DNA of 45,391 bases, from NCBI GenBank assembly GCA_049969715.1, contig JBMFOH010000012.1:1-45391 (forward strand), written 5' to 3'. The position numbers were made by a program, and so were the translations under genes. The notes under the pieces are model-generated. The model ran no database searches and had not been told where the DNA came from. It saw only the letters and a program-made list of their open reading frames with translations. This stretch comes from JBMFOH01 sp049969715 [NCBI: bacterium]. Lineage in GTDB: Bacteria; DUMJ01. Below are positions 1,531 through 33,100 of the stretch, one piece after another (position 1 is the first letter of the stretch; each line of letters opens with the position of its first letter).

Positions 1531-2676
1531 CTAGTTATGCTTTATAAAGGACTTTATTAACCTACCTATCTGATAAGATATCCATTCTAGCTCTTCGGAT
1601 GTGTTCTTCATAGACTCCTCTAGAGAGATAGGTCCACTTACTATAGAAAAGAGCGCATCCACTAGGTTCTCTTCTTGAAGTATATCAGCATTTTTTTCTA
1701 CTGTTCCACCCAGAAAGACTACTGGTATACCTCTTTCTTTTGCCTTCTTTGCAATGCCAGCAGGGGCTTTGCCAAAAAAGGTTTGACTGTCTATCTTTCC
1801 TTCTCCACTTATGACTAAGTCTACACCTTCCAAGGAACTTTCTACTTTTAATATCTCCATTACTACTTCTATTCCTGGCTTAAGCTTTGCATCTAAAAAC
1901 GCTATAAGTCCACCACCTAACCCTCCAGCTGCACCTGAGCCTGGAATGTCTAATATATCCTTCCCTAGGTCCCTTTTTACCACACAAGAGAAATTATACA
2001 AGGCTTTATCTAGCTTTTCTATAAGGTCTCTATCTCCGCCTTTTTGAGGTCCATATATATATGATGCTCCTTCTGGACCACAGAGAGGGTTCTTCACATC
2101 AGCCATAACGACAACTTCACAATCCCCTGCTAATGGAAGGAATCCACTCATATCAATATGGTGAAGGCTTAAAAGGGCAAGTCCTCCAAATGGGATGTCT
2201 CTATCATTTTTATCTAGGAGTCTTGCACCTAATGCTTGTGCCATTCCAGCCCCGCCATCATTGGTAGCGCTTCCTCCAATTCCGATAAGTATCTTTTTAG
2301 CTCCTTCTTCTAATGCTCTCCTTATGAGTTCCCCAACTCCATATGTAGTAGTAATAGCAGGATTTCTCTTCTCTTTAGGAACCAATGCTAACCCAGATGC
2401 CCTAGCCATCTCTATAACCGCTGTCTTTCCATCTCCGAGGATTCCAAACTCTGCCAGCCTTTTCTCTCCGAGAGGTCCAGTTACTTCCGTCTGGATGATT
2501 CTTCCATTAGTTGCTTCTACCAGTACCTCTATCGTTCCATCCCCTCCGTCTGCTATAGGAAGGGTGATAATATTACTTTCAGGGAGGGCTCTTATGAGTC
2601 CTCCCTTTATCGCCTCAGCAGCCTCTTTTGCTGATAATGCCTCTTTAAATGCGTTTGGAGCCACCAAAATCTTCAT
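1531..2676 (-). CDS. glxK: Glycerate kinase (GlxK/GarK family)
   Basis: 381 residues, the usual family length. It phosphorylates D-glycerate with ATP; this family generally yields 2-phosphoglycerate. Family signatures are APNAFKEALSAKEAA (residues 6-20), IADGGDGT near residue 43, and a glycine-rich IGIGGSATNDGGAGMA near residue 132. The start ATG overlaps the stop of the upstream reductase (ATGA), so the two genes are coupled. It is the last gene of the lacI-iolB operon. Together with the reductase it would turn glyoxylate-derived or hydroxypyruvate-derived glycerate into a glycolytic intermediate. No clear terminator follows; only a weak interrupted hairpin lies near 1411-1453. Confidence 0.9.
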   Translation of the reverse strand: MKILVAPNAFKEALSAKEAAEAIKGGLIRALPESNIITLPIADGGDGTIEVLVEATNGRIIQTEVTGPLGEKRLAEFGILGDGKTAVIEMARASGLALVPKEKRNPAITTTYGVGELIRRALEEGAKKILIGIGGSATNDGGAGMAQALGARLLDKNDRDIPFGGLALLSLHHIDMSGFLPLAGDCEVVVMADVKNPLCGPEGASYIYGPQKGGDRDLIEKLDKALYNFSCVVKRDLGKDILDIPGSGAAGGLGGGLIAFLDAKLKPGIEVVMEILKVESSLEGVDLVISGEGKIDSQTFFGKAPAGIAKKAKERGIPVVFLGGTVEKNADILQEENLVDALFSIVSGPISLEESMKNTSEELEWISYQIGRLIKSFIKHN

Positions 2677-3647
2677 GGCTCTATAGCTTCAGGATTTACT
2701 GGATTTGGTGGCCTTTTGTTTGCCAGTACAGCTAAAAGATTTTCTGCCGCCATTGTTGCCATTTTAGTTCTTGTCTCTACACTGGCACTTGCTATATGTG
2801 GAAGAAGTACAGTATTTTCACATTCTACTAATCCAGGGGTTAGCCTTGGTTCAAATTCATAAACATCTAAACCTGCCCCTGCAATCCACCCCTCCTTCAA
2901 AGCCTTTACTAGACTGATCTCATCTACTACTGGCCCCCTTGAAGTATTTATAAGATAGGCCGTCTTCTTCATCTTCTTTAATCTTTCTTCATTTATTAGA
3001 TGATATGTCTCAGGGGAAAGGAATGTATGGAGAGAGACGAAATCACTATTTTCTAAAAGTTCATCTAACAAAACGAAGGTGGCATTTAACTCTCTTTCTA
3101 TCTCTTCAGGAAGTCTTCTTACATCGTTATATAGAATCTTCATATTGAAGCCCTTGGCTCTCCTTGCTACCGCCTGTCCAATTCGTCCCATCCCTACAAT
3201 TCCTAAGGTTTTTCCAAAGATATCCTGCCCAAGAAATAACATAGGGGCCCATCCTTCATATCTACCAGCCCTGGTAAACTTATCTGCCTCTACAATCCTT
3301 CTCGCTACAGACATTATAAGCGTCCATGCCAAATCAGCTGTTGTCTCTGTAAGCACCCCCGGGGTATTTGTAACTATTATACGCCGTCTAGTAGCTTCAT
3401 TTACATCTATATTATCATAACCTACTGCATAGTTACTCACCACTTTTAATTGAGGACCTGCTGCATCAAATACCTCTGCATCAATCTTATCAGTAAGAAG
3501 GGTTAGAATACCATCCCTTCCTTTTACAGCTTTAAGCAACTCGTCTCTTGTAAGTACCCTATCATATGGATTTATCTCTACCTCATGTTCTTTGGCTATC
3601 ATATCTATCCCTGGCTGAGGGATTCGTCTAGTAATATAAACCTTCAT
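2673..3647 (-). CDS. gyaR: Glyoxylate/hydroxypyruvate reductase (D-2-hydroxyacid dehydrogenase, GyaR-like)
   Basis: 324 residues, a standard D-isomer-specific 2-hydroxyacid dehydrogenase. The NAD(P)-binding GMGRIG is at 152-157. The catalytic set is Arg237 (NTSRGP), Glu266 (DVYEFEP) and His284 (PHIASAS). The family reduces glyoxylate to glycolate and hydroxypyruvate to D-glycerate. Overlap with glycerate kinase makes hydroxypyruvate (or glyoxylate) to glycerate to phosphoglycerate the likely sequence here. GGAGGT lies about 10 bases before the ATG. The cofactor preference (NADH or NADPH) was not determined. Confidence 0.88.
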   Translation of the reverse strand: MKVYITRRIPQPGIDMIAKEHEVEINPYDRVLTRDELLKAVKGRDGILTLLTDKIDAEVFDAAGPQLKVVSNYAVGYDNIDVNEATRRRIIVTNTPGVLTETTADLAWTLIMSVARRIVEADKFTRAGRYEGWAPMLFLGQDIFGKTLGIVGMGRIGQAVARRAKGFNMKILYNDVRRLPEEIERELNATFVLLDELLENSDFVSLHTFLSPETYHLINEERLKKMKKTAYLINTSRGPVVDEISLVKALKEGWIAGAGLDVYEFEPRLTPGLVECENTVLLPHIASASVETRTKMATMAAENLLAVLANKRPPNPVNPEAIEP

Positions 3648-3661
3648 GATCTCTTTACCTC

Positions 3662-5008
3662 CTAGCTTAGTAAAAATCCGGATGAAGATATTATATCACC
3701 TAAACCAACAGTAAGTTTAGGTTTTGGAATAACCTTGGTTGGAACTACTATTAGGGTATAGTCATCTATCTTTCTTATCCCTTCATAACCTAAAAGGGGG
3801 AAAGTAGGATACTGCAATCCCTGATATAGGTCTTCTTTTTTCTCATATCTTCCAAGTAGACATCTTGTAGCAGCTAATACTGCGGCAAAAAGGAGTGCAT
3901 CCCTTTCTTCGGTGTCATTTTCCCCTCTTGTCAGTACTATGTAGTGTCCTAGGGTGTGTAACTGTATCCTCTTTAAGGTTGTCATTTTCATTATCTTCAA
4001 AAGACCTGAGATAAGAGATTCTAAGGAGAAGTTTGTGTCTCTCACTGACCTTGCTAGCGATTCCCCTCCCAAGTCATTTAGTAGTGTCAAGAGTTCGATC
4101 TCATTACATCCTAGACTGTCCACTATTGGAAACATATGACTTATCACATTTTTCCTTATTGTAGGGCTTCCAATAGAAGCAAATTCATAATGAACTTTCA
4201 AAGTCATTCTTTCTTTCATCTCTTTGACGAAAGAAGCTACTGGGATAATAAAATCTTTACAGGTTTTCCCTTCAGGATATCTCTCTAACAAGATATGAAA
4301 TCCAGAGACTAAGAAATGGGAAAATTTTTCATCTAGAAGAAATATGTTTCTTTTAAATATCTCACTTATTTTTAGTCTACAGTTTATAGGATTCCAAGCA
4401 GCGATAAATCTATTTGCTCGAGGAGATTCAAATGTATTGCTATTGAGTTTTACCTTTAGCCCCTTCTCGTATTCTAATATCCAATGGATAGCAAACACCC
4501 CTTCCTCGTCCCACGCCTTCTTTGGTGGCAGTAGTACTGGTTTATTCTCTCTTTCTTTCAATACAAATATGTTGTCTCTTTCTGGAAATAGTTGAGCTAG
4601 CTCTTTAGTTAGAGGGTTAGCATATACAAGGATCTTTTTTATAGGTAATGGGGACAAAAGACTTGCCATATTTGCAGAGGTTCCTCCCAATCTCAAGTAG
4701 TCATATCCTATATTTTCAAGCACCCAATTAAAGGTTTTTTCATCTTCGATCATCCTTTGATAGGCAAGCCCATTTTTAATCGAAACAAGGAGGTCAGTTA
4801 AAAAGTCCAGAGGTTTGCCTATAGTAGAGGTAGGTTCTTCAGGTAATGTTTTAAGTTCTGGGAATTGCTTTAGAAGTTCGGCTATAAGGTTCTCATCTAC
4901 CCTTTTTAACCCATCTATAGTAGAATGAAAACCCGTTATAACTCCAGGTATATTCTGAAGTTTTTCCCAACCTTTTTCTAATGCCTGTTGATATAATTCA
5001 TCCCACAT
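3662..5008 (-). CDS. ADP-dependent sugar kinase (ADP-phosphofructokinase/glucokinase family)
   Basis: 448 residues, the size of the archaeal ADP-dependent glucokinase/phosphofructokinase family (ribokinase-like fold). Visible motifs, numbered from the chosen start: GGTSANMA (108-115), VHYEFAS (272-278), the metal-associated NXXE as NEIE (302-305), and GLGD with catalytic Asp438 followed by ISSSGF. Known members use ADP rather than ATP. The start is ATG 5008 because GAGGAGG lies 9 bases upstream; an upstream in-frame start at 5026 has no such site. It lies between a LacD-like aldolase and the GyaR/GlxK pair, where an inositol operon would carry the PfkB kinase IolC. The substrate is therefore inferred to be a keto-sugar acid such as 2-deoxy-5-keto-gluconate or fructuronate. 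A role as ADP-phosphofructokinase in glycolysis is the alternative. Confidence 0.8.
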   Translation of the reverse strand: MWDELYQQALEKGWEKLQNIPGVITGFHSTIDGLKRVDENLIAELLKQFPELKTLPEEPTSTIGKPLDFLTDLLVSIKNGLAYQRMIEDEKTFNWVLENIGYDYLRLGGTSANMASLLSPLPIKKILVYANPLTKELAQLFPERDNIFVLKERENKPVLLPPKKAWDEEGVFAIHWILEYEKGLKVKLNSNTFESPRANRFIAAWNPINCRLKISEIFKRNIFLLDEKFSHFLVSGFHILLERYPEGKTCKDFIIPVASFVKEMKERMTLKVHYEFASIGSPTIRKNVISHMFPIVDSLGCNEIELLTLLNDLGGESLARSVRDTNFSLESLISGLLKIMKMTTLKRIQLHTLGHYIVLTRGENDTEERDALLFAAVLAATRCLLGRYEKKEDLYQGLQYPTFPLLGYEGIRKIDDYTLIVVPTKVIPKPKLTVGLGDIISSSGFLLS

Positions 5009-5858
5009 TACGCTTAGCCTCCTCATAGGCAGATTCTGCAGTATAACTATTATGGAGAATTAGTTTCATAGCCATTGCCATTATCTCTGGATCTTTATTT
5101 AGAAATACATTTCTTCCTACTACAAAGCCTGAAGCTCCTGCCTTTATGCCATCCTCAAAATCTCTCAGTATATCTAAGGGATTATCTCTTCTTGGTCCAC
5201 CAAGGAGAAGAATCTTGGCATTTACACTGTCTACTATCCTTTTGAATTGAGATATCCCTTCTTCTCTATTCTCAGCTTGTACATATGGAATTTTAAGTAT
5301 AGGGATATGAAAGTCATTAGTAATGATAGAAACCCACTTTATAGACTCATAAGAACGATCCATTACTAATCTCCCCTCTATCTGATTCATATAGAGAGGT
5401 TCGACCATAAGTGGAAGAGACCATCTTTCACACTCTTGTACTATGTTATTCAGAAGCGTTAATTGCTCATTAGTAAATGGATTATCTTTGTTAAATTTTA
5501 TAAGTAACTTTACTCCATCCAGTCCCCACTTAAGGGCTGTCTCTACTGAGGTAACTAATCTATCATCCATCTCAAACCCTGTATTTGCTAATCCTGTCCT
5601 ATTTAGACTTAGTACTAATCCTTTACCTCGAAGAGAATCACTCACTATTAATTGAGCTAAGGGTTCTTTTGTAGTCATAATAGCATCTATATAGGGAGCA
5701 ATCCCCTCTATCAAGGAGATTAAACCGTTAAAATCATCTATACCATCCTGGATGCCTCTCTGTCTATGGTCTATAGCTAAGACCATTGTCTTTCCATCCT
5801 TTGCAAATATATGAGACATCCTGTTAACAATACCTATATTATAGAAGAATGATTCCAT
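4998..5858 (-). CDS. Class I aldolase, LacD/LsrF/DhnA-like TIM barrel
   Basis: 286 residues. The predicted Schiff-base lysine is Lys189 in IPILKIPYV, matching the VLKVEVPV site of tagatose-bisphosphate aldolase LacD. Lys117 (DGVKLLI), Asp30 (AIDHRQRG) and Glu153 (MVEPL) also fit. A phosphate-binding end is suggested by LLLGGPRR (217-224) and VVGRNVF (247-253). Relatives cleave phosphorylated ketoses or deoxy-sugars to DHAP plus an aldehyde; YihT (sulfoquinovose) and LacD are examples. The stop overlaps the kinase start by 11 bases, which argues for kinase then aldolase action on one metabolite. In an iol context it would replace the class II aldolase IolJ. The substrate is inferred, not shown. 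AGGGGG lies about 7 bases before the ATG. Confidence 0.78.
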   Translation of the reverse strand: MESFFYNIGIVNRMSHIFAKDGKTMVLAIDHRQRGIQDGIDDFNGLISLIEGIAPYIDAIMTTKEPLAQLIVSDSLRGKGLVLSLNRTGLANTGFEMDDRLVTSVETALKWGLDGVKLLIKFNKDNPFTNEQLTLLNNIVQECERWSLPLMVEPLYMNQIEGRLVMDRSYESIKWVSIITNDFHIPILKIPYVQAENREEGISQFKRIVDSVNAKILLLGGPRRDNPLDILRDFEDGIKAGASGFVVGRNVFLNKDPEIMAMAMKLILHNSYTAESAYEEAKRNVG

Positions 5859-5869
5859 TAAGATTCCCC

Positions 5870-6892
5870 CTAATCGTTTATTATTATTGATTTTCCAGTT
5901 CTACTGGACTCATATACTGCCAGTATAAACTGAATAGCCCTTCTTCCATCCTCTCCTGTGATGCTTGGAGTTCTATTATATAATACTGCCTCAGCCATAT
6001 CTCTTATCTGAGCAGTATGTCCTAGAATAAAGATTGCCTTTGGATCACTTGCCCCTGTAGCTCCTTGAGTGATAGACTCTTTCTTTTCTTCTCCCATTAT
6101 CATCCAATCTCTTACAAATGGACCTTCAACTATAATACTTCCATTTGTTCCGTGAAATTCTAACCTCTCTTTAAATCCAGGATAGCAGGCAGTTGAACCC
6201 TGAATCACTCCAAGAGCCCCATTCTTATATTTTATAATAGCAATGGCAACATCTTCTACTTCTATCTTATGAGCAAGAGTACCACAGTAAGCTGTTACCT
6301 CCTTAACAGGCCCAGCCAGATAGAGAAGCTGATCTACAAAATGAACAGATTGGTTCATAAGAGCTCCTCCACCATCTAATGTCCATGTTCCGCGCCAACC
6401 TGCACTATCATAGTACTCCTGGGGTCTCCACCACTTCACATAGGCATCAGCCATAACAAGCCTACCTATTCTCCCTGAGTCTATTGCCGACTTTAATTCC
6501 TTTATACCTTTATCAAACCTGTGCTGAGAGATTACGCTAAGTTTTACACCAGTCTTCTTGCATGTTTCTATAAGTGTATCTGCCTTTTCTAAGGTTATAT
6601 CTATCGGTTTTTCCACCAACACATGTTTACCTGCTTTTGCCGCTTTTACCCCTAAATCTGAATGTAATCCACTAGGAACACATATACTTACTACATCTAT
6701 ATCTTGCCTAGCTAACATTTCTTCGTAGTCAGTATACCAATCTACCCCATATTTCTCTCCTAAAGTTTTTGCCTTTTCTGGAACTATATCACATACTGCT
6801 TTTAACTCTGCTATATCAATGTTCCCTATAGCCTCCGCATGCGTAGGTCCTATCACTCCGCATCCAACTATACCAAATCTTACCTTATCCAT
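5870..6892 (-). CDS. Gfo/Idh/MocA-family NAD(P)-dependent dehydrogenase
   Basis: 340 residues. The N-terminal Rossmann motif is GIVGCGVIG (7-15), and EKPID (94-98) carries the family's conserved lysine. The C-terminal substrate half has DGGGALMNQSVHFVD (173-187) with His184. The family oxidises or reduces cyclitols and sugars (myo-inositol dehydrogenase IolG is one member). The GGGALMNQ version is common in sugar-operon oxidoreductases other than classical IolG, so I give no gene symbol. It lies between the isomerase and the aldolase with gaps of only 4 and 11 bases. Plausible substrates are an inositol, a uronate or a 3-keto-sugar. Confidence 0.8.
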   Translation of the reverse strand: MDKVRFGIVGCGVIGPTHAEAIGNIDIAELKAVCDIVPEKAKTLGEKYGVDWYTDYEEMLARQDIDVVSICVPSGLHSDLGVKAAKAGKHVLVEKPIDITLEKADTLIETCKKTGVKLSVISQHRFDKGIKELKSAIDSGRIGRLVMADAYVKWWRPQEYYDSAGWRGTWTLDGGGALMNQSVHFVDQLLYLAGPVKEVTAYCGTLAHKIEVEDVAIAIIKYKNGALGVIQGSTACYPGFKERLEFHGTNGSIIVEGPFVRDWMIMGEEKKESITQGATGASDPKAIFILGHTAQIRDMAEAVLYNRTPSITGEDGRRAIQFILAVYESSRTGKSIIIND

Positions 6893-6896
6893 AATA

Positions 6897-7718
6897 TCAC
6901 CTCTCTATCTCATTTAGTATCTTTTTTAATGCCTGAGATGCTCTTTTGAACAATTCTGGGCCAGAGAACCCTTGAAATTGTCCACTATGAGCTAGATGTG
7001 GTTCAAGACTTAGGAAAAACTCTCTGTGTTTACTCTTTAATGTCTTGAGCAGTTCTTCTATCTCTCCATCCCCTTCTCCAGCTGGGACCTCTATTCCATT
7101 AGAAAAATGTGCATCCTTTATATGGACATATTCTATGTAATTCTCTATAAGGGGATAAGCCTCCCTGAATGGTTTTACATTGCATTGAATAAAGTTAGAT
7201 GGGTCAAAAACGGCCTTTAAATTTGGGGAGCTTATACTCTTTAATATATCAAGACATCTTTCTGGGGTATCCCCATATATTCTTTTTTCATTCTCATGTA
7301 AGAGGATGACATCTTCCTTCTCTGCAATCTTAGTAAACTCTCCAATTCTATCTATTGCTACATTTCTTAATTCTTCAATACTCATATTTGCCTCTGGATA
7401 GAATGAGAATATTCTGATATAAGAGGTGCCAAAGAAATGTGTTAGCTTTATTGCATTGTTGAGTTTATCAATCTGTTCTTTCCTTTCTTCATTGGCTCTT
7501 ACTTTACCCAGTGGGGATGCAATAGCAGAGACATTTATTCCATATTTAGAGAGAAGGTTTTTTATAGTTCTTGCATCTTCTTCTGTTAGTTCTACTACAT
7601 TCTTACCTAAGGCACTACGAAGTTCAAGATATTTTATGCCCTCTTCACTTAGGGTCTTAAGCTGTTCTTCAAAATCTAGAGAGATCTCATCTCCAAAACC
7701 AGAAAGCTTATACCACAT
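6897..7718 (-). CDS. Sugar phosphate isomerase/epimerase-like TIM barrel (xylose isomerase-like superfamily)
   Basis: About 273 residues. It shows GFGDEISLDFEEQL at the N terminus, ELRSALGKNV near residue 34 and RIFSFY near residue 99, a recurring signature of one COG1082 subgroup. Candidate metal ligands are Glu in LLHENE, Asp in FDPSNF, His in VHIKDAH and Glu in LSLEPH. The start is ATG 7718, with GGAGG 8 bases upstream; an upstream TTG at 7733 has none. The superfamily includes IolE dehydratase, IolI isomerase, hydroxypyruvate isomerase and epimerases, so several reactions are possible. Its position directly after iolB suggests action on the same or the preceding intermediate. Confidence 0.7.
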   Translation of the reverse strand: MWYKLSGFGDEISLDFEEQLKTLSEEGIKYLELRSALGKNVVELTEEDARTIKNLLSKYGINVSAIASPLGKVRANEERKEQIDKLNNAIKLTHFFGTSYIRIFSFYPEANMSIEELRNVAIDRIGEFTKIAEKEDVILLHENEKRIYGDTPERCLDILKSISSPNLKAVFDPSNFIQCNVKPFREAYPLIENYIEYVHIKDAHFSNGIEVPAGEGDGEIEELLKTLKSKHREFFLSLEPHLAHSGQFQGFSGPELFKRASQALKKILNEIER

Positions 7719-7734
7719 AATCTCATCCTCCAAT

Positions 7735-8541
7735 TTAGAGTTCTTTAACCACAGGTTCTATCCTCTTAACCCAACTATGTTTAGGGTCATCTCTTGGTAT
7801 ATTAACAGGTTCTTTTCCTCCGAGTACCCAAAGGTAGTAGAGAGAATAACCTGGGGCTGCTACTACTGGATGATATCCCTTTATAATAGGCATCGCTGTA
7901 TTATCAAAGACAGTAATGGTTTGATCAAAATCTCCTTCTTCTGTATAGACCTTCTGAATTCCAAATCCTTCCTGTGGATTTATTCTATACAGATAGACCT
8001 CTTCCATTTGCCATTCAAACGGTGGATTATGCTTATCATGCTTATGTGGTGGATAGCTCGACCAATTTCCCGGAGGATTTACAGTCTCTCCCATTATTAT
8101 ATGGTTACCCCCTGCGGTATTATCTATCACCTGAGTTACATATCTCTTCCAATTATGTACGCCAACTATTCTCCTCTCTATCTCTCTAGGAGATATTACT
8201 GCAACATTACCCTCTACTGGTTCTGACTTTACTTTTGCTACTATAAGTTCACTGCTAGTTAAACTAGTAAGCTTTATCTTTCTGTTTGGGGGTATATATA
8301 TACCCCAAGGCTTACTATTAAATACCTCCATCCTTGGGCCTAATACATATTTCTTTCCATCTATGTTTACCTCTATCTTCCCTAGAGTAAGGATACAACC
8401 AATCTCGCTATCTGTGTCTCCAAGGGAGAAATCTTCATTCTTATCTAATCTTAAAACAAAAAGGCTTATCCACTTTAATCCTTCCACAGGAACTTCGAGC
8501 ATCCCTTTACCATTTGGTACTTTAACTAAAAGAGTACTCAT
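7735..8541 (-). CDS. iolB: 5-deoxy-glucuronate isomerase (IolB)
   Basis: 268 residues, two cupin-like halves. The diagnostic block NPPGNWSSYPPHKHD (155-169) supplies His166 and His168. EEVYLYR (180-186) and GYHPVVAAPGY (222-232, His224) complete the metal site seen in IolB/KduI. Known IolB converts 5-deoxy-D-glucuronate to 2-deoxy-5-keto-D-gluconate in inositol breakdown. The related KduI can also isomerise plain hexuronates. The start is ATG 8541, which overlaps the upstream stop (ATGA) and has AAAGGAG at a good distance. The GTG at 8550 would sit on the ribosome site itself. This is the best identified anchor of the operon's chemistry. Confidence 0.88.
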   Translation of the reverse strand: MSTLLVKVPNGKGMLEVPVEGLKWISLFVLRLDKNEDFSLGDTDSEIGCILTLGKIEVNIDGKKYVLGPRMEVFNSKPWGIYIPPNRKIKLTSLTSSELIVAKVKSEPVEGNVAVISPREIERRIVGVHNWKRYVTQVIDNTAGGNHIIMGETVNPPGNWSSYPPHKHDKHNPPFEWQMEEVYLYRINPQEGFGIQKVYTEEGDFDQTITVFDNTAMPIIKGYHPVVAAPGYSLYYLWVLGGKEPVNIPRDDPKHSWVKRIEPVVKEL

Positions 8542-9293
8542 TCCTTCCACTCCTTTCTCAGATACTCTAAACTTTGCGATAGTTCTCTTGCTTTATCTTC
8601 CCATCTACACTCAATGGAAATAGCGTTATTATATCCTATATTCTTTAGATAAGAGAAGAAAGACTCAAAGTCATAATTTCCCCTTCCTGGGGCTATTCGT
8701 CCTCTATCAGACACATGGATGTGATAGAGTTTATTTTTTATCCTTCCTAAATTAGATAATGGCTCACCTTCTAGGTCTGCATGATAGGTATCTATCAGAA
8801 CTCCAACATAGGGGTTATCTACAGCCTCCGCAAACTCTAGTGCTTCTAGTGTAGTGTTTATTATATTACTTTCCTGTCTATTCAGCGGCTCTATTGCAAT
8901 TTTTATGTCGTATCCTTGGGCATACCTAGATACTAATCTTAGAAACGCTACTATCTGTTCACTTGCCTTTTCTTTAGAGAACCCTTCAGGGATAGACCTT
9001 GCCCTACCACTTCCAAATACTATTATCTTACCGCCAAGAAGGTTTACCCTCCTTAAGGCTTCTTTGACGTAATCTTGTAACCTTTCTATATCTACCGATG
9101 GTCCAGTTATAGACAAATCTCCTGGAAGAAACACATTGAAAGAATAGGCTCTAAGATGGCTTTCATCGAGAAGATTTTTTAATCTCTCTATATTACTATT
9201 CACAATTTCTGTTACTGCAAGTTCTATAAAGTCAGCTCCGCTTGACTTTATGATTTCTATCTCTTCTTGTATTCCACAACATCCAAAATTCAT
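8538..9293 (-). CDS. D-tagatose/psicose 3-epimerase-like TIM barrel
   Basis: 251 residues. The metal-site pattern of ketose 3-epimerases and relatives is present: IEPLNRQ near residue 138, LIDTYHADLEGEP near 166, HIHVSDRGRIAPGRGNYDF near 191 and ISIECRW near 225. The family epimerises ketoses at C3; related proteins act as IolE-type dehydratases or hydroxypyruvate isomerases. The start overlaps the lacI stop by 4 bases, and its stop overlaps iolB. As first enzyme gene of the operon it may prepare the entering keto-sugar or keto-inositol. The exact reaction is not determined. Confidence 0.75.
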   Translation of the reverse strand: MNFGCCGIQEEIEIIKSSGADFIELAVTEIVNSNIERLKNLLDESHLRAYSFNVFLPGDLSITGPSVDIERLQDYVKEALRRVNLLGGKIIVFGSGRARSIPEGFSKEKASEQIVAFLRLVSRYAQGYDIKIAIEPLNRQESNIINTTLEALEFAEAVDNPYVGVLIDTYHADLEGEPLSNLGRIKNKLYHIHVSDRGRIAPGRGNYDFESFFSYLKNIGYNNAISIECRWEDKARELSQSLEYLRKEWKE

Positions 9294-10291
9294 CTTGACC
9301 TCCTTATTGTGGTGTTTCTTATTACAAGTTCAGGTTCAAGCAATAGATTCTCTCTTTCTCCTCTCATTAGTTTAAAAAGTAACTCAACTGCCTTTTGCCC
9401 GAGCTCTTTCTTCTGTTGCCTTATAGTAGTAAGGGGAGGGTCTGTAAAACTAGAAAAGAAGATATCATCAAATCCTATTATAGAGAATTCTTCTGGAACT
9501 TTTATCCCTAACTCTCTAGCTGCATTTATCACTCCAAAAGCCATTACATCATTATATGTAAAGATAGCAGTAGGGGGATCTTTAGTATAAAACAATCTTA
9601 TGGCTTCTTTATATGCTGATTCTGCAATAGGAACATTATAAGAGACAAGCTCAGGGTTATATTTAATTTCTGCCTCTTCCAATGCCATCCTATACCCTTC
9701 TAACCTCTTTTCTGCTGCCTCTGAGTGGTGCGGTCCGTTTATAAGGGCAATCTTAGAGTGTCCTAATTTTATTAAGTGCATAGTAGCTAAATAACCACCC
9801 TTTACCATATCGGTAGCGACATAAGCGACAGAAGGATGTTCAAGTATCTTATTTATTACTACTATTGGCAGCCCTTCTTCTGCTAGCGAGATTATCTGTT
9901 CATTAGAGATCCTTGAAGCAGAGATAATGACCCCATCTACCGGCCCTCTTGAGAAGAAATCTAAATAACTTTCCTCCTTTTCTTCTGATTCAGCTGTATT
10001 CCCCAAAAGTATAGTATAACCAGCTTCATTTGATGTCTCTTCTGCCCCTCTTACTACTTCTGGAAAGAATGGGTTGGTAATATCAGTTATAAGAAGCCCA
10101 ATGGTCTTTGTGCTTCGAGTTGTTAGTACCTGCCCCCTATAGTTAGGTTTATAATTTAACCTTTTTGCCACCTCAATGATCCGAAGCCTGGTCTTCTCAC
10201 TTATCCCAGGAAATCCATTAAGGGCTCTACTTACAGTTGATGGTGACACCCCTGCTAATTTTGCTACCTCTTGAATATTTACTCTTCTCAT
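9290..10291 (-). CDS. LacI-family transcriptional repressor
   Basis: 333 residues. The DNA-binding helices are NIQEVAKLAGVSPSTVSRALNG (4-25) with hinge KRLNYKPNYRGQVLTT, followed by a periplasmic-binding-protein-like effector domain (TIGLLITDITNPFF to FSIIGFDDIFFSSFTDPPLTT). It is first in the catabolic operon and therefore probably autoregulated. A LacI-type site covers its ribosome-binding region (10297-10314), and a second lies in the divergent promoter (10485-10498). The start ATG 10291 is preceded by GGTGG. The effector is presumably an operon intermediate. Confidence 0.9.
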   Translation of the reverse strand: MRRVNIQEVAKLAGVSPSTVSRALNGFPGISEKTRLRIIEVAKRLNYKPNYRGQVLTTRSTKTIGLLITDITNPFFPEVVRGAEETSNEAGYTILLGNTAESEEKEESYLDFFSRGPVDGVIISASRISNEQIISLAEEGLPIVVINKILEHPSVAYVATDMVKGGYLATMHLIKLGHSKIALINGPHHSEAAEKRLEGYRMALEEAEIKYNPELVSYNVPIAESAYKEAIRLFYTKDPPTAIFTYNDVMAFGVINAARELGIKVPEEFSIIGFDDIFFSSFTDPPLTTIRQQKKELGQKAVELLFKLMRGERENLLLEPELVIRNTTIRRSR

Positions 10292-10296
10292 TTTTG

Positions 10297-10314
10297 TTTA
10301 CCACCGATTGCAAA
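10297..10314. promoter_or_regulatory. LacI-type operator candidate in the lacI leader
   Basis: On the minus strand TTTGCAATCGGTGGTAAA is a partial palindrome centred on CG. Its left half, TGCAANCG, fits the general LacI/GalR consensus TGNAANCGNTTNCA. It lies between the transcription start and the ATG of lacI, covering the GGTGG ribosome site, so binding would block the operon. Confidence 0.5.
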
Positions 10315-10324
10315 GTTTATTTGA

Positions 10325-10353
10325 ATTGTACAATGAAATTCCCTAAAAGTCAA
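10325..10353 (-). promoter_or_regulatory. Promoter of the lacI-iolB-kinase operon
   Basis: On the minus strand, TTGACT (10353-10348), a 17-base spacer and TACAAT (10330-10325). It is close to the sigma-A consensus and gives a leader of roughly 25-30 bases containing the operator candidate. Confidence 0.75.
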
Positions 10354-10510: not shown

Positions 10511-11569
10511 GTGAGAGTAAAAATAGAAGGATTAATAAAAGAGAATATGACTAGTAGGGAGATTGTTGTTAAAAGTTTAAAGTTTGAAGGACCTGAGAGA
10601 ATACCTATGACTTTACCTCCACCTTACCCTAATGATATTGTTGGGGTGGGGTTAGGACCAAATCCTTATATCAGTGAAGAATGGGTCTATAAGGGTAATA
10701 ATAGATGGGAAAGAATAGATGAATGGGGAAATACCTGGGCAAGGCTAGAGGCATATTCTAAAGGGGAAGTGGTAAAAGGATCCATAGAAGATTGGAATCA
10801 GTTAGATTCTTATGAATTTCCACCTCTTGATTTGGATGTTAGATATGAGCCAGCAAGAAGGTCCTTCAAAGAAACCCCAGACAAATTCCATGTAGGTTTT
10901 CTACCTGGGTTCCCCTTTAGTGTAGCAAGATATTTACGGAGAATGGATAATTTCCTCCTAGATGTTGCAGCAGAAAAAGAAAATGTGGCAAAGCTACTCA
11001 AAGATATAGCTGACTTATTAGAGATAGTTATAGAAAGGTTTGCTAAGGTAGGAGCAGATGCTGTTATGTTTGCTGAGGATTGGGGTACACAGGACAGGCT
11101 TCTCGTCAGTCCAAAGTCATGGAGGGAGCTATTTAAACCAGGATTTATTCAGCTATGTAATACAGCCCATAAACTAGGGGTATATGTCTTTATGCATTCC
11201 TGTGGTCACATATACGAGATAATACCAGATCTAATAAAGGTTGGTATAGATGTTTTGCAGTTTGATCAGCCAGCGCTACATGGGGTAGATAATCTAGCTA
11301 GAGATTTCGGGGGTAAGGTTAATTTCTGGTGTCCCGTAGATATCCAGCAGGTCCTTCCCAAAAGGGACGAAACCTTGATAGAAGACTTTGCTAAGGAGAT
11401 GATAGAAAAACTAGGTTCATTTAATGGAGGATTTATAGCAGGGTATTATCCATCTAATGAAGCCCTTGGACTTGATCCTTACTGGCAGGATGTAGCATGT
11501 AAGGCTTTTGTCAAGTATGGAATGAGAGAATATAAATTAATTAAAAATATGGAGGTTGATAGAAAGTGA
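10511..11569 (+). CDS. Uroporphyrinogen decarboxylase/MtaA-like family protein of unknown substrate
   Basis: 352 residues from GTG 10511. An ATG at 10547, giving MTSREIVVKSLKFEGPERIPM, is the more typical family start, but neither has an ideal ribosome site. The fold family (URO-D, CmuA/MtaA methyltransferases) is recognised from the N-terminal ERIPM motif, FAEDWGTQDRLLVSPKSWRELFKP (188-211) and MHSCGHIYEIIPDLIKVGIDVLQFDQP (228-254). HSCG keeps the His and Cys that bind zinc in MtaA-type methyltransferases, which true HemE lacks. No haem genes are nearby. Members often occur in sugar operons with no established role. It overlaps the next gene by 4 bases and is likely under LacI control. Confidence 0.7.
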   Translation: MRVKIEGLIKENMTSREIVVKSLKFEGPERIPMTLPPPYPNDIVGVGLGPNPYISEEWVYKGNNRWERIDEWGNTWARLEAYSKGEVVKGSIEDWNQLDSYEFPPLDLDVRYEPARRSFKETPDKFHVGFLPGFPFSVARYLRRMDNFLLDVAAEKENVAKLLKDIADLLEIVIERFAKVGADAVMFAEDWGTQDRLLVSPKSWRELFKPGFIQLCNTAHKLGVYVFMHSCGHIYEIIPDLIKVGIDVLQFDQPALHGVDNLARDFGGKVNFWCPVDIQQVLPKRDETLIEDFAKEMIEKLGSFNGGFIAGYYPSNEALGLDPYWQDVACKAFVKYGMREYKLIKNMEVDRK

Positions 11570-13539
11570 ATGGTTTAAAAGGATTTACCATTTTGGTGTT
11601 AGTGTTCAGTTTGATATTAGCCACTGTAAAGGTCTCATTCTCACAAGGGACCATAGTCCCCGGAGAGTACTATAATATGTCTGATTATGAAAAGCTTTCT
11701 GGGAAAAAGATTACTAAGTTCAGCGAGGCACCACAATTATTAGACTTAGTAAAACAGGGTAAACTTCCCTCGGTAGACCAGAGACTCCCAAGGAATCCAT
11801 TAATAGTAACTCCGGTAGAAGAGATCGGGCAGTACGGGGGAAATTGGCATAGGGTATGGTTAGGACTTTCTGATCAGTGGGGTCCAAATAAAATCTGTAC
11901 TGAACATCTTGTAATGTTTGATAAGAGTGGAACAAAGGTATTACCTAATGTAGCAGAAAGTTGGAAGGTTTCAAAAGATGCCAAGACCTACACATTCAAG
12001 CTTAGAGAAGGAATTAAGTGGTCAGATGGAATACCATTAACTACTGATGATGTAATGTTCTGGTACGAGGATGTGTTGTTAAATAAAGACCTTACTCCTA
12101 ATATACCAACATGGCTCGCATCCGGAGGAAAGCCATGTAAAATAGAAAAGGTTGACAACTATACATTTACAGTAACATTTGAGCAGCCTAATCCTCTCTT
12201 TTTGATAAATATATGCAAGCAGGGAGGTAATTCCTTCTTTCTCCCTAAACACTATGGGAAACAATTCCATCCAAAGTATACATCAAAGGAAGAACTAGAT
12301 AAAAAGATTAAGGATGCTGGATTTCAATTCTGGTATCAACTATTTGATGCAAAGGTAAGTAACTCTAACGCCTGGCTCCAAAATCCAGAGCTTCCTGTAT
12401 TGTATCCCTGGAGGAATACATCTTCTCCTACTGCTACTACAATGGTATTTGAGAGAAACCCATACTATTGGAAGATAGACCCTGCTGGGAACCAGCTTCC
12501 TTATATAGACAAGATCTCTAATGCCCTTGTAGAGAATAGAGAAATGGTTGTAATGAAAGCTATAGCTGGAGAGATAGATATGCAGGAGAGACATCTTACC
12601 CTATCAGACTATACATTACTGATGGAGAATAGATCTAAAGGGAATTATAGGGTTCTTCAATGGAAACAAGGAGTAGGTTCTGATGTTATGTTATGCTTAA
12701 ATCAAAATGTAAAAGACCCCGTTTTACGTAAGATATTTGAAGATAGAAGATTCAGAGAGGCTCTATCTATAGCTATAAATAGAGATGAGGTATGGAAGCT
12801 CATCTATCTTGGTATGGGTAAACCTAGACAGTGTTCTCTCATAAGTGGAGTTGCCTTTTATGATCCAGAATGGGAGAAGACTTGGGTTGAGTATGATCCA
12901 AAGAAAGCAAATGAAGTTTTAGATAGAATTGGTCTTAACAAGAGAGATAAGGATGGTTTTAGAATGAGGCCTGATGGAAAGACCTTAGCTCTGACTATAA
13001 CATTCCCTAGCGGTATATTTGGTGCCTGGTCAGATGTTCTTGAGATGGTGAAGAAATACTGGGAGGCTGTTGGTGTAAAGGTGGCAATCCAACCGGTTGA
13101 AAGGTCTCTGTATGTTACCAGAGCCACTGCAGGAGACCTAGAGATTGGGGTTTGGAACTTTGATAGAAACACAGCAATAATGTCTGACCCTGGAAGATTA
13201 TTAGGGACAACAACTGATGGACCTTGGGCACCCCTCTATGCTCAGTGGTACAATACTGGAGGTAAAGGTGGAGAGGAACCTAAAGGAGATATAAGAAAGA
13301 TCTATGAGCTTTGGGACAAGGTTACAATCACACCTGATGAAACTCAAAGGAATAGACTCTTTAAAGAGATAATTAACCTCCATAAGAGAAATATCTGGAT
13401 GATAGGTATTGTAGGAGAATTGCCTCAACCTGTAGTAGTAAAGAATAACTGTAGAAATGTTCCAGATGGCATTATCTGGGATGATACCCTTAGATCTCCT
13501 AAAAATGCTCGTCCAGAACAATTTTCCTTTAAACAGTAA
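11566..13539 (+). CDS. ABC transporter solute-binding protein, family 5 (Opp/Dpp type), orphan
   Basis: 657 residues. An export signal occupies the first 27 residues or so (FTILVLVFSLILATVKVSFS, then QG). The mature part has family-5 features: LPNVAESWKVSKDAKTYTFKLREGIKWSDGIPLTTDDVMFWYE and an internal AINRDEVWKLIYLGMGKPRQ. In thermophiles this family takes up oligosaccharides as often as peptides. The start is GTG 11566 (GTGA overlap with the upstream stop), with GGAGGT upstream. No permease or ATPase follows. The importer must be encoded elsewhere, or the protein may share the permeases at 22791-24645. The ligand is unknown; the operon context suggests the substrate of the catabolic operon. 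Confidence 0.85.
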   Translation: MNGLKGFTILVLVFSLILATVKVSFSQGTIVPGEYYNMSDYEKLSGKKITKFSEAPQLLDLVKQGKLPSVDQRLPRNPLIVTPVEEIGQYGGNWHRVWLGLSDQWGPNKICTEHLVMFDKSGTKVLPNVAESWKVSKDAKTYTFKLREGIKWSDGIPLTTDDVMFWYEDVLLNKDLTPNIPTWLASGGKPCKIEKVDNYTFTVTFEQPNPLFLINICKQGGNSFFLPKHYGKQFHPKYTSKEELDKKIKDAGFQFWYQLFDAKVSNSNAWLQNPELPVLYPWRNTSSPTATTMVFERNPYYWKIDPAGNQLPYIDKISNALVENREMVVMKAIAGEIDMQERHLTLSDYTLLMENRSKGNYRVLQWKQGVGSDVMLCLNQNVKDPVLRKIFEDRRFREALSIAINRDEVWKLIYLGMGKPRQCSLISGVAFYDPEWEKTWVEYDPKKANEVLDRIGLNKRDKDGFRMRPDGKTLALTITFPSGIFGAWSDVLEMVKKYWEAVGVKVAIQPVERSLYVTRATAGDLEIGVWNFDRNTAIMSDPGRLLGTTTDGPWAPLYAQWYNTGGKGGEEPKGDIRKIYELWDKVTITPDETQRNRLFKEIINLHKRNIWMIGIVGELPQPVVVKNNCRNVPDGIIWDDTLRSPKNARPEQFSFKQ

Positions 13540-27377: not shown

Positions 27378-28388
27378 GTGGAACTCATAGAGGTTTTAAA
27401 GAAACTATCTAGCTTGGATGGCCCTTCTGGATATGAAAAAGAGGTTATAGGATATATAAAGGAAGAGGCAGATAGAATTCCTAATACTAAATCTGAGATC
27501 GACAGACTAGGAAATCTTATAGTAAGAAAAGAAGGCACAGGGAAGAAGATAGCTTTATTTGCTCATTCTGACGAGATAGGATTTGTTATTACTAAAAAAG
27601 AGTATGGAAACTACTGGAGATTCTCTAGCTTTGGAGGAATCGACCCTAAGACAGTGATCTCTCAGAGAATTAGGATCTATACTAGAGACGGAGGCGTGGC
27701 TATAGGAGTAGTAGGAATGCTTGAACCTCACTTACAGACTGAAGAGACTAGAGCAAAGGTTCCATCTTTTGACTATTTATTTCTAGATATAATAGAGGGC
27801 CAAGAAAGGGTTGAGATAGGTAACATAGGAGTATTTTCTTCAGAACCGTTCTTGTTGTCAGAAAGGTATTTCACAGGAAAAGCATTGGATAATAGGGCTA
27901 GTTGTGCCACGTTGTTATATACCTTAGAACTCTTGAGTACGTTCATTCACAATATAGATCTCTACTTTGTATTTAATATAAGAGAGGAAGATGGTAGTTC
28001 TGGCGCAAGAAATATAGCTTATTCTCTAAAGCCAGACCTTGCGATAATTCTAGATGTAACACATGGAGATATAGATGTCCCTTCTCATCCTAAGATAGAA
28101 ACGGGAAAGGGACCTGCCTTAGATGTTGGTCCAGTTATAAATTATGAATACCTCGAAAGACTAAAGAAACTAGCAGAAAAAATATCGGTGAATTATCAGA
28201 TAGAACCTACAGGTGGAGTAAGTTACACTGATACGGATGCCGTACAGATTACAAGAGGAGGAATTCCAACCTTGTTAATTTCTATTCCTCTTAGATATAT
28301 GCATACCCCCTATGAGGTAGTAAATATAAAAGATATAGAAGAGACAGGTAGACTTCTTAGCTTCTTTGTTGCTAGAGGAGGTGAATAA
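27378..28388 (+). CDS. M42-family aminopeptidase (TET/FrvX type), first copy
   Basis: 336 residues. The complete M42 metal and catalytic set is visible: AHSDEIG (His63, Asp65), ALDNR (Asp171), IREED (catalytic Glu203, ligand Glu204), LDVTHGD (Asp226) and RYMHT (His309). M42 enzymes build dodecameric tetrahedral cages that trim short peptides in the cytoplasm. IREEDGSSGA departs from the usual QEEVGLRGA, hinting at altered specificity or subunit pairing. GTG 27378 follows AAGGAGG. It is the first gene of a nine-gene operon. Confidence 0.88.
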   Translation: MELIEVLKKLSSLDGPSGYEKEVIGYIKEEADRIPNTKSEIDRLGNLIVRKEGTGKKIALFAHSDEIGFVITKKEYGNYWRFSSFGGIDPKTVISQRIRIYTRDGGVAIGVVGMLEPHLQTEETRAKVPSFDYLFLDIIEGQERVEIGNIGVFSSEPFLLSERYFTGKALDNRASCATLLYTLELLSTFIHNIDLYFVFNIREEDGSSGARNIAYSLKPDLAIILDVTHGDIDVPSHPKIETGKGPALDVGPVINYEYLERLKKLAEKISVNYQIEPTGGVSYTDTDAVQITRGGIPTLLISIPLRYMHTPYEVVNIKDIEETGRLLSFFVARGGE

Positions 28389-28389
28389 T

Positions 28390-30403: not shown

Positions 30404-30416
30404 CATGAGGAATGCC

Positions 30417-31256: not shown

Positions 31257-31261
31257 AAATA

Positions 31262-32197: not shown

Positions 32198-32209
32198 GAG
32201 GTAAAATCT

Positions 32210-33100
32210 ATGAAGATAGGTTTTATAGGACTTGGGATAATGGGAAAGCCTATGGCTAAGAATCTTATGAAATCTGGATATAAGCTTGTGGTATATGACA
32301 TTAATAAAGAGCCAGTAAAAGAATTAGTGAGTTTAGGGGCAGAAGAAGGTTTCTCACCTAAAGATGTGGCAGAAAGGACAGACATAATAATAACAATGCT
32401 TCCAGACTCACCGCAGGTAGAAGAGGTAATTTTAGGGGAAAATGGTGTCTTAGAAGGAGCTAAAAAGGGTTCAATAATAATAGATATGAGTTCTATCAAT
32501 CCTGCTGTCTCTAGAGAAGTGGCTATAAAAGCCGAAGAGATAGGGATAGACTTTATAGATGCTCCTGTAAGTGGTGGAGAGCCAAAAGCTATAGACGGTA
32601 CTCTATCTATAATGGCAGGAGGAAAGAAAGAAGTTCTTGATAAATGTCTTGATATCTTGAGTAAGATGGGGACTTCTATAACTCATTGTGGTGATGTTGG
32701 CTCTGGTAATATAACGAAGCTAGCAAATCAGATAATAGTAGCACTCAATATAGCTGCAATGTCAGAGGCACTAGTGTTAGGCACAAAATCAGGAGTTGAT
32801 CCAGAGATAATATACAAGGCAATAAGGGGAGGACTAGCAGGGAGCACTGTTCTCGATGCTAAAGTTCCAATAGTTCTAGATAGAAACTTTAACCCTGGCT
32901 TTAAGATAGACCTTCATATAAAGGACCTAAAGAATGCGATAGAGACTGCCCATAAGGTTGGGGTTCCTTTAGTACTTACAAGTCAAATAATGGAGATATT
33001 ACAGGCATTAAAGGTTGACGGAAAAGGGCAGATGGATCACAGTGCAATCATCCAGTTTTATGAAAAGCTTGCTCATATAGAGGTAAAAAGAAAGAGATAA
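32210..33100 (+). CDS. garR: Tartronate semialdehyde reductase / 3-hydroxyisobutyrate dehydrogenase family
   Basis: 296 residues, full length for the beta-hydroxyacid dehydrogenase family. NAD site GLGIMGKPM (7-15), substrate site DAPVSGGEPKAIDGTLSIMAGG (117-138), catalytic Lys170 in GSGNITKLANQ. The match to the GarR type is best in the SGGEPKAIDGTLS block. GarR reduces tartronate semialdehyde to D-glycerate. Glycerate made here would be a substrate for the glycerate kinase at 1531, although the genes are in different operons. Other 3-hydroxyacid substrates are possible. AGGAGGT precedes the ATG. Confidence 0.83.
   Translation: MKIGFIGLGIMGKPMAKNLMKSGYKLVVYDINKEPVKELVSLGAEEGFSPKDVAERTDIIITMLPDSPQVEEVILGENGVLEGAKKGSIIIDMSSINPAVSREVAIKAEEIGIDFIDAPVSGGEPKAIDGTLSIMAGGKKEVLDKCLDILSKMGTSITHCGDVGSGNITKLANQIIVALNIAAMSEALVLGTKSGVDPEIIYKAIRGGLAGSTVLDAKVPIVLDRNFNPGFKIDLHIKDLKNAIETAHKVGVPLVLTSQIMEILQALKVDGKGQMDHSAIIQFYEKLAHIEVKRKR

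What the first reader, a model, noticed from the sequence alone, without database searches (positions are those of the whole stretch)
1531..10353. Inositol/uronate-type operon in which an ADP-dependent kinase and a LacD-like aldolase replace IolC and IolJ
Seen: a nine-gene operon with an unmistakable IolB, two TIM-barrel isomerases and a Gfo/Idh dehydrogenase. Where IolC (PfkB kinase) and IolJ (class II aldolase) are expected, it has a kinase with the GGTSANMA, NXXE and GLGD motifs of the ADP-dependent glucokinase/phosphofructokinase family and a class I aldolase with Schiff-base Lys189. Known: that kinase family is mainly archaeal and acts on glucose or fructose-6-phosphate. Inferred: this member phosphorylates a keto-sugar acid, an undescribed activity for the family, saving ATP by using ADP.
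Basis: partly seen in the sequence, partly recalled or inferred. Interest (0 to 1): 0.85.

Follow-up and report, generated by a model that had tools for sequence, protein, structure and literature searches.

The report
ADP-dependent kinase for uronic acids
A compact bacterial operon appears to break down uronic acids in the way glycolysis breaks down sugar, using a kinase from a mainly archaeal ADP-using family whose sugar-binding pocket has been rebuilt for a new substrate.

Summary
The nine-gene operon is real and recurs complete, in order, in three uncultured genomes, the only ones held for their phylum. The kinase belongs to the ADP-dependent PFK/glucokinase family by sequence and predicted fold. 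It lies in a bacterial clade (support 100/99) that kept the catalytic residues; in the window kinase all six contacts to the phosphate of fructose-6-phosphate are replaced, and nearly all are across the clade. So it is probably neither a fructose-6-phosphate kinase nor a glucokinase.

The inositol frame is weaker. IolC, IolD and IolE do not reach their cut-offs in the three relatives, and the operon ends in a 2-hydroxyacid reductase and glycerate kinase. In Thermotogota the same kinase and aldolase sit in clusters that begin with a BH0493-type uronate isomerase, with TRAP or sugar transporters and in two genomes a beta-glucuronidase-like gene. The window also encodes tartronate semialdehyde reductase.

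Best reading: an Embden-Meyerhof-like hexuronate pathway (ketouronate, ketouronate-1-phosphate, then DHAP plus tartronate semialdehyde, glycerate, phosphoglycerate) in which IolB replaces uronate isomerase. No enzyme is assayed; 'saving ATP' is not supported.

The parts
10325..10353 (-). Promoter-like site TTGACT-17-TACAAT upstream of the operon
   Evidence: Located; a similar site in the aligned upstream regions of L005, L006 and L007
10308..10324 (-). Operator-like imperfect palindrome, possible LacI site
   Evidence: Similar sequence in 4 of 4 upstream regions; coordinates; binding is inferred
9290..10291 (-). LacI-family regulator, first gene of the operon
   Evidence: PF00356, PF13377; 75-77% identity in L005-L007
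8538..9293 (-). TIM1: xylose-isomerase-like TIM barrel related to ketouronate epimerase IolO; proposed ketouronate epimerase, alternatively hydroxypyruvate isomerase
   Evidence: NF041099 IolO 134 bits, below its cut-off of 300; hydroxypyruvate isomerase 69 bits; best solved relative TM_0416, 105 bits
7735..8550 (-). IolB/KduI-family cupin isomerase; proposed aldo-keto isomerase of the uronate
   Evidence: PF04962 236 bits, TIGR04378 203.1 bits against 205, 2qjv match with the HKHD, E and GYHP positions kept
6897..7733 (-). TIM2: second xylose-isomerase-like TIM barrel, role unclear
   Evidence: PF01261 97 bits; only weak solved relatives; 78-81% identity in L005-L007
5870..6892 (-). Gfo/Idh/MocA oxidoreductase, IolG-like but closer to the 3q2i dehydrogenase; role unclear
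   Evidence: a 45.7% identical relative follows the kinase in L142 and one read as two ORFs follows it in L143
4998..5858 (-). Class I (Schiff-base) aldolase, Cgl0159/DhnA type; proposed ketouronate-1-phosphate aldolase
   Evidence: PF22649 and PF01791; Lys189; co-occurs with the kinase
3662..5008 (-). ADP-dependent kinase of the bacterial ADP_PFK_GK clade; proposed ADP:ketouronate 1-kinase
   Evidence: start chosen from AGGAGG
2673..3647 (-). D-2-hydroxyacid dehydrogenase, glyoxylate/hydroxypyruvate reductase type; proposed to make D-glycerate
   Evidence: NF009714 glyoxylate reductase 427 bits against 455; glyoxylate reductase 2dbq 368 bits
1531..2676 (-). Glycerate kinase, last gene of the conserved block
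   Evidence: PF02595 484 bits, TIGR00045 490 bits against 168
32210..33100 (+). Tartronate semialdehyde (2-hydroxy-3-oxopropionate) reductase elsewhere in the window; would process the second aldolase product
   Evidence: NF008592 501.7 bits against 397; TIGR01505 420 bits against 340.75; not part of the operon and not looked for in G001-G003

Best explanation
The operon encodes a glycolysis-like route for hexuronates. (1) A hexuronate is isomerised to a ketouronate (fructuronate or tagaturonate type), here by the IolB/KduI-family protein, in one group of Thermotogota by a BH0493-type uronate isomerase. (2) The IolO-like TIM barrel may adjust its stereochemistry. (3) The 3662-5008 kinase phosphorylates the hydroxymethyl group next to the ketone with ADP, giving ketouronate-1-phosphate; this is the chemistry of ADP-PFK with a carboxylate in place of the C6 phosphate. 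(4) The class I aldolase splits it into DHAP and tartronate semialdehyde. (5) Tartronate semialdehyde becomes D-glycerate, through the reductase at 32210-33100 or through hydroxypyruvate and the reductase at 2673-3647. (6) Glycerate kinase gives a phosphoglycerate. Shown: the operon, its conservation, the kinase family, its altered acceptor site, and co-location of kinase and aldolase with uronate isomerase in Thermotogota. Inferred: every substrate and product, ADP as donor, and the roles of TIM2 and the Gfo/Idh enzyme.
For: Acceptor site: in the AncMsPFK structure the phosphate of F6P contacts N32, N34, E90, K179, N181 and Q244 (PMC7948494, abstract and passages). In the 23 bacterial kinases (window included; rows with a gap left out) these are H 22/22, V or T 22/22, Q 21/22 (R once), A 22/23 (T once), H 23/23, H 22/23 (Q kept once), while D36, G114, G115, R206 and the GXGD Asp are unchanged. 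Of 13 clade-diagnostic columns 8 are among the 22 acceptor-site residues named in the passages; P about 2e-8 over 397 usable columns, ignoring kinship. The kept D36 was critical for F6P and hinders glucose (same abstract), which fits a ketose substrate. GXGD has Leu in 22 of 22, the ADP type (PMC5931981, passages). Uronate context: in 8 of 8 Thermotogota genomes where the BH0493-type uronate isomerase was found it lies about 2 kb upstream of the aldolase domain of the TIM-Cgl0159 fusion on the same strand; its profile matches PDB entries labelled BH0493/uronate isomerase at 612 bits. In the four clusters read, a transporter and the kinase follow: TRAP in L142 and L143, sugar ABC with a beta-glucuronidase-like gene in Athalassotoga and G010. 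Strong mannonate dehydratase occurs in 1 of the 20 genomes searched. Co-occurrence: strong kinase in 10 of 103 Thermotogota genomes, all 10 among the 12 with strong PF22649; PF22649 in 11 of 13 kinase genomes given to the search, 1 of 14 controls over the cut-off. In the operon's own lineage UxaC and BH0493-type isomerases are not found (0 of 3 each) and IolB is the only PF04962 protein. KduI was proposed to isomerise glucuronate and galacturonate in E. coli (PMC3578941, passages). The end products have their enzymes: glycerate kinase and tartronate semialdehyde reductase. In L011 the kinase is next to IolB and two genes from a class II aldolase.
Against: I found no activity reported for any member of this kinase clade. 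11 of the 22 bacterial loci show no Cgl0159-type or class II aldolase near the kinase in the stretches read; two of these, L023 and L025, are contigs of genomes with the aldolase on another contig; other aldolase types were not looked for systematically. In L014 and L017 the kinase follows lpxK, so the clade may have other substrates. The uronate isomerase clusters are all Thermotogota; G004 has the isomerase on another contig, and Thermotogota G008, G011, G013 and G098 have kinase and aldolase but no such isomerase. The Thermotogota clusters read show no match to the window's reductase or glycerate kinase and have a transketolase-like gene instead. The IolB protein scores close to the inositol-pathway model (203.1 against 205), and the Gfo/Idh enzyme's best equivalog model is inositol dehydrogenase, though far below cut-off (182 against 355). 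IolO itself belongs to an inositol pathway. Related genomes in the 2x2 test are not independent. Completeness of the MAGs is not told.
Confidence: 0.62

Rival explanations
1. Inositol catabolism with swapped parts: the kinase phosphorylates 2-deoxy-5-keto-D-gluconate and the aldolase gives DHAP and malonate semialdehyde.
For: IolB near the cut-off of its equivalog model, Gfo/Idh nearest to IolG among NCBIfam models. G004 has an IolB protein, IolD (in two contig-end pieces of 693 and 275 bits, neither alone over the cut-off of 715) and IolE (420 bits, over the cut-off) with no IolC over the cut-off anywhere, plus this kinase and a Cgl0159 aldolase elsewhere in the genome.
Against: IolD and IolE, needed to make the IolB substrate, are not found in the 3 genomes with the operon (IolD at most 241 bits against 715, IolE at most 53 against 290). 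Glycerate kinase and hydroxyacid reductase have no use in that route. Thermotogota clusters with uronate isomerase carry the same kinase and aldolase families.
Confidence: 0.13
2. Inositol or another cyclitol enters through a Thermotoga-like route (dehydrogenase, ring opening to 5-keto-L-gluconate, IolO-type epimerase), and the kinase and aldolase then act on that ketouronate. The lower half is as in the best explanation; the feed differs.
For: TIM1 is closest to IolO/TM_0416; a Gfo/Idh enzyme is in the operon; [quoted passage not shown] maritima inositol pathway (PMC5931981 passage; IolO as 4-epimerase, PMC12632266 passage).
Against: The T. maritima control has no PF04962 match, so its ring-opening enzyme is not of the IolB family. 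The Gfo/Idh enzyme is closer to 3q2i (218 bits) than to 3ezy (131 bits) among solved structures (that 3ezy is T. maritima IolG is recalled).
Confidence: 0.12
3. The module acts on another ketose or ketose-like acid (for example a sulfo-sugar, a deoxyketose or a ketopentonate), with DHAP and a different aldehyde as products.
For: Several bacterial loci show no uronate context; a transketolase-like gene is conserved in Thermotogota clusters.
Against: Uronate isomerase, beta-glucuronidase-like genes and a tartronate semialdehyde reductase point to hexuronates.
Confidence: 0.1
4. An ordinary ADP-dependent phosphofructokinase or glucokinase borrowed for glycolysis.
For: Family and fold.
Against: In the window kinase all six F6P-phosphate contacts and the glucose-site residues E90 and Q116 are replaced; the gene sits inside a sugar-acid operon.
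Confidence: 0.03

Closest known systems
Archaeal ADP-dependent phosphofructokinase/glucokinase (PF04587; 6c8z/6xio AncMsPFK, 1gc5 TlGK)
   Same: Fold (Z 46.6, 2.5 angstrom, 441 residues aligned to 1gc5), catalytic Asp, Arg206, D36 equivalent, NXXE, GXGD with Leu
   Different: Separate bacterial clade with the F6P-phosphate and glucose contacts replaced
Bacterial isomerase pathway of hexuronates (UxaC, UxaB/UxuB, UxaA/UxuA, KdgK, KdgA)
   Same: Starts from hexuronate and ketouronate
   Different: No reduction and dehydration to KDG; ketouronate would be phosphorylated and cleaved to DHAP and tartronate semialdehyde. UxaC was found in 1 of 13 and strong UxuA in 1 of 20 genomes searched. Pathway as described in PMC6353982 (passages)
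myo-Inositol catabolism IolG-E-D-B-C-J
   Same: IolB-family isomerase, keto-acid kinase, DHAP-forming aldolase, Gfo/Idh dehydrogenase; formally the same isomerase-kinase-aldolase logic
   Different: No IolC, IolD or IolE over the cut-off in the relatives; different kinase family; glycerate-forming end
IolC-DUF2090 fusions, alternative DKGP aldolase (PMC9007349, passages)
   Same: A class I aldolase paired with the kinase in place of IolJ
   Different: Other aldolase family (Cgl0159/DhnA) and other kinase family
Thermotoga maritima inositol pathway (IolO/TM0416; TM0415 PPi-kinase)
   Same: Ketouronate intermediates and an IolO-type epimerase; unusual phosphate donor
   Different: [quoted passage not shown] no PF04962 match in T. 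maritima
Lactobacillus suebicus galacturonate route joined to the phosphoketolase pathway (PMC6978723)
   Same: A hexuronate pathway that leaves the classical isomerase route
   Different: Seen only as a listing with the start of the abstract; steps not compared

Membership tests
ADP_PFK_GK kinases (PF04587) | Profile match above the gathering score over the whole length | tested here: met
   248.9 bits against 27, residues 28-452
ADP_PFK_GK kinases (PF04587) | Ribokinase-type fold of ADP-dependent members | tested here: met
   Model pLDDT 92; the first 22 Foldseek rows and the first 17 VIA-align rows are ADP-dependent kinases
ADP_PFK_GK kinases (PF04587) | Catalytic Asp of GXGD, catalytic Arg206, NXXE, Ile or Leu in GXGD | tested here: met
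ADP-PFK (F6P-specific) | F6P-phosphate contacts N32, N34, E90, K179, N181, Q244 | tested here: not met
   H, T, Q, A, H, H in the window kinase
ADP-glucokinase | Glucose contacts E90 and Q116 | tested here: not met
   Q and T
ADP_PFK_GK kinases (PF04587) | Uses ADP as donor | not testable with these tools
   Only inferred from GLGD and family
Canonical iol pathway | IolD and IolE encoded | tested here: inconclusive
   Not over the cut-off in the 3 relatives with the operon; window's own genome not held
Canonical iol pathway | PfkB-type IolC | tested here: inconclusive
   None over the cut-off in the 3 relatives (187-191 bits against 300), though they have 7, 8 and 7 PfkB matches; own genome not held
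5-deoxyglucuronate isomerase IolB | TIGR04378 equivalog score | tested here: inconclusive
   203.1 bits against a cut-off of 205
5-keto-L-gluconate epimerase IolO (TIM1) | NF041099 equivalog score | tested here: not met
   134.2 bits against 300
Inositol 2-dehydrogenase IolG | TIGR04380 equivalog score | tested here: not met
   182.5 bits against 355
Cgl0159-like class I aldolases (PF22649) | Profile match and conserved Lys | tested here: met
   92.3 bits against 27; Lys189 kept in 11 of 11 aligned, window included
Glycerate kinase (TIGR00045) | Subfamily score | tested here: met
   490 bits against 168
Tartronate semialdehyde reductase (TIGR01505) | Equivalog score of 32210-33100 | tested here: met
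   420 bits against 340.75; NF008592 501.7 against 397
Hexuronate pathway with UxaC or BH0493 isomerase | A uronate isomerase of either known type in operon-bearing genomes | tested here: not met
   0 of 3 for both; BH0493 type found in 8 Thermotogota and G004 of 20 searched

The most novel reading that the evidence does not exclude
A further substrate class of ADP-dependent sugar kinases exists in bacteria of several phyla: ADP:ketouronate 1-kinases. They define an unreported hexuronate pathway in which the ketouronate is phosphorylated and cleaved like fructose-1,6-bisphosphate, yielding DHAP and tartronate semialdehyde with no KDG, and in this lineage an IolB-family protein serves as the uronate isomerase.
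Probability: 0.58. Interest if true: 0.82.

Novelty: new variant of a known kind. Interest (0 to 1): 0.72.

Why it matters
If right, it adds a new acceptor to a kinase family described as having glucose, fructose-6-phosphate or both as substrates (PMC7948494, abstract), and another logic for bacterial hexuronate use beside the isomerase and oxidative routes described in PMC6353982 (passages). It would keep all six carbons in glycolytic intermediates and is directly testable in the named strain Athalassotoga saccharophila NAS-01 (L022, NZ_AP019551.1). It also warns that 'ADP-dependent phosphofructokinase/glucokinase' would be a wrong label for this bacterial clade.

Tried and rejected
The kinase sequence alone found nothing in genome contigs; the alignment A1 did. 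Plasmids held only 4 haloarchaeal kinases at about 25% identity; the two regions read have no neighbourhood like this one. The idea that the IolB protein is the T. maritima ring-opening enzyme was dropped because the T. maritima control has no PF04962 match. An early note said the glucose-determining Glu became Arg; the full alignment shows Gln (corrected in the notebook).

Counts and what they leave out. Of the 22 bacterial loci 8 have the Cgl0159-type aldolase next to the kinase (L005-L007, L012, L016, L018, L021, L024), L020 and L022 have it in the same cluster about 10 kb away, L011 has a class II aldolase, and 11 show neither; neighbours were scanned by Pfam for some loci only. Loci L009, L013-L015, L017, L019, L023, L025 and L026 were not given to the 13-genome searches (13 of 22 given), so '11 of 13' is not a random sample. 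In the Thermotogota count, weak kinase hits in G058 and G062 and a fragment in G027 were not counted as strong, and PF22649 hits under 200 bits were left out (the raw tallies are 13 and 26 of 103). The two aldolase-only genomes G024 and G025 have contigs ending 360 and 473 bases from the aldolase, so the missing kinase there says little. UxuA: 3 of 20 genomes pass the cut-off; two of them (G001, G003) barely, with 24.0 and 25.9 bits against 23.7 over part of the profile, and I took these as background. L026 (fragment) and L077 were dropped before the tree; L019 is read in two frames and only its first part was used. A first hypergeometric used rounded numbers; one search repeats it with the counted 397 columns. 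Altronate dehydratase was not tested. Promoter/terminator scanning and Rfam were not used.

Literature. No paper in the library held 'tagaturonate kinase', 'fructuronate kinase', 'tagaturonate 6-phosphate', 'tagaturonate 1-phosphate', '5-ketogluconate kinase' or 'ketouronate'; no paper held all of ADP-dependent, inositol, kinase, aldolase and iolB; listings showed no such pathway by title or start of abstract. The library is open access only.

Full report
1. The observation. The operon is as described: nine genes on the minus strand from 10291 down to 1531, overlapping or separated by at most 14 bases. Pfam and NCBIfam give LacI, two xylose-isomerase-like TIM barrels, an IolB/KduI protein, a Gfo/Idh oxidoreductase, a Cgl0159/DhnA-type class I aldolase, an ADP_PFK_GK kinase, a glyoxylate/hydroxypyruvate-type reductase and a glycerate kinase. 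The kinase start at 5008 has an AGGAGG site, and the relatives in L005-L007 have 448 residues, as it then has. A promoter-like site ends at 10353 and has similar counterparts upstream of the other three operons.

2. Conservation. A scan of the genome collection with a five-sequence kinase alignment confirmed 207 relatives, of which the best 80 were kept; by record title the first 22 (L005-L026) come from bacteria and the others kept from archaea. L005, L006 and L007 carry the entire nine-gene block in the same order. Only three genomes are held for their phylum, and all three have the kinase. Compared with 38 window proteins, genes of L005-L007 outside the block show only two distant matches (24% and 39% identity, to general families), so conservation stops at LacI and glycerate kinase.

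3. The kinase. The predicted model (mean pLDDT 92) matches ADP-dependent glucokinases and phosphofructokinases over its whole length (Z 46.6, 2.5 angstrom, 441 residues for 1gc5). The 22 bacterial rows of the tree, window included, form one side of a branch with support 100/99. The F6P-bound AncMsPFK paper names the residues that hold the phosphate of F6P (PMC7948494, abstract and passages). I mapped them onto the alignment: N32, N34, E90, K179, N181 and Q244 are all changed in the window kinase (H, T, Q, A, H, H) and, with a single exception at Q244, in the other bacterial rows, while D36, G114, G115, R206 and the GXGD Asp are unchanged. Eight of the 13 columns that separate the clade are acceptor-site residues (P about 2e-8 over 397 columns, ignoring kinship). 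R212 and S211, also near F6P, are N and W in 23 of 23. The clade therefore probably has a common, different acceptor. D36 was critical for F6P and its loss makes a glucokinase in AncMsPFK; its retention fits a ketose-type substrate (inference). The Leu in GXGD fits ADP use (PMC5931981, passages). Donor and acceptor remain untested.

4. The partner aldolase. Cgl0159-family aldolase (PF22649) is found in 11 of 13 kinase-bearing genomes given to the search, against 1 of 14 control genomes over the cut-off. The two without it are G005 and G006; in G006 the kinase lies with IolB and a class II aldolase. In 103 Thermotogota genomes the kinase is strong in 10, and all 10 are among the 12 with a strong PF22649 hit (Fisher p 2.8e-12, ignoring kinship). 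In the Thermotogota fusions read and in G004 the aldolase is fused to a TIM barrel; in Halanaerobiales L012 a related TIM barrel and aldolase are separate genes next to the kinase. The Lys aligned with Lys189 is conserved in all 11 aldolases aligned.

5. The substrate. In four Thermotogota clusters that I read (L123 with L022, L147 with L020, L142, L143) the first gene encodes a protein of about 415-425 residues with no significant Pfam match (one of the four scanned), whose profile matches the PDB entries of BH0493, labelled uronate isomerase, with 612 bits. It occurs in 9 of 20 genomes searched, eight of them Thermotogota, and in all eight it lies about 2 kb upstream of the aldolase domain on the same strand. 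Two clusters then have a TRAP transporter (DctP, DctQ and DctM by Pfam in L142; 66-82% identical genes in L143); two have a sugar ABC transporter and a gene that in Athalassotoga scores best as beta-glucuronidase (488.6 bits against 544) and in G010 is 88% identical to it. In G013 an IolB protein 41.6% identical to the window's lies two genes from another beta-glucuronidase-like gene (495 bits). A relative of the window's Gfo/Idh enzyme (45.7%) follows the kinase in L142. Strong mannonate dehydratase is present in 1 of 20 of these genomes, so ketouronate may need another outlet; altronate dehydratase was not tested.

6. Putting the window together. In the three relatives with the window's operon neither UxaC nor the BH0493-type isomerase was found, but each has one IolB/KduI protein, in the operon. 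KduI has been proposed to isomerise glucuronate and galacturonate in E. coli on physiological evidence (PMC3578941, passages). I infer that this IolB protein does so here. Phosphorylation next to the ketone and aldol cleavage would give DHAP and tartronate semialdehyde. The window has a tartronate semialdehyde reductase above its curated cut-off at 32210-33100, a hydroxypyruvate-type reductase and a glycerate kinase. I could not tell which of the two reductases acts, nor assign TIM2 or the Gfo/Idh enzyme. In Thermotogota the transketolase-like gene could use hydroxypyruvate instead (speculation).

7. Inositol. IolD, IolE and IolC do not reach their curated cut-offs in G001-G003; completeness of these genomes is not told.

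8. Verdict. It is best filed as a new variant: a known kinase family with a new acceptor class in a sugar-acid pathway that my searches of the open-access library did not find.

Noticed in passing
27378-30403: Three tandem aminopeptidase-family genes that match the same four NCBIfam models, none reaching its cut-off.
   Followed up: no
30405-33100: Two adjacent genes that look by eye like a split transketolase, followed by tartronate semialdehyde reductase on the same strand; possibly a second part of the same metabolism.
   Followed up: partly
322-1314: Protein with only a weak match to a beta-1,2-mannobiose phosphorylase model (21 bits), downstream of the operon, without a counterpart in L005-L007.
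   Followed up: no
10511-13539: A gene that looks by eye like a uroporphyrinogen-decarboxylase homologue (no NCBIfam match at 1e-20) and a solute-binding-protein-like gene, divergent from the operon.
   Followed up: no
L014 and L017: The same kinase clade follows lpxK, with no Cgl0159-type aldolase in the stretch; the acceptor-site motifs are alike.
   Followed up: partly
L022:12226-14448, L142:1454-3685: A diverged transketolase-like protein of about 740 residues is conserved near the kinase in Thermotogota.
   Followed up: partly
L069, L084: Asgard and nanohaloarchaeal kinases branch next to the bacterial clade; L069 is intermediate in the acceptor site (H at 181, D at 212).
   Followed up: no
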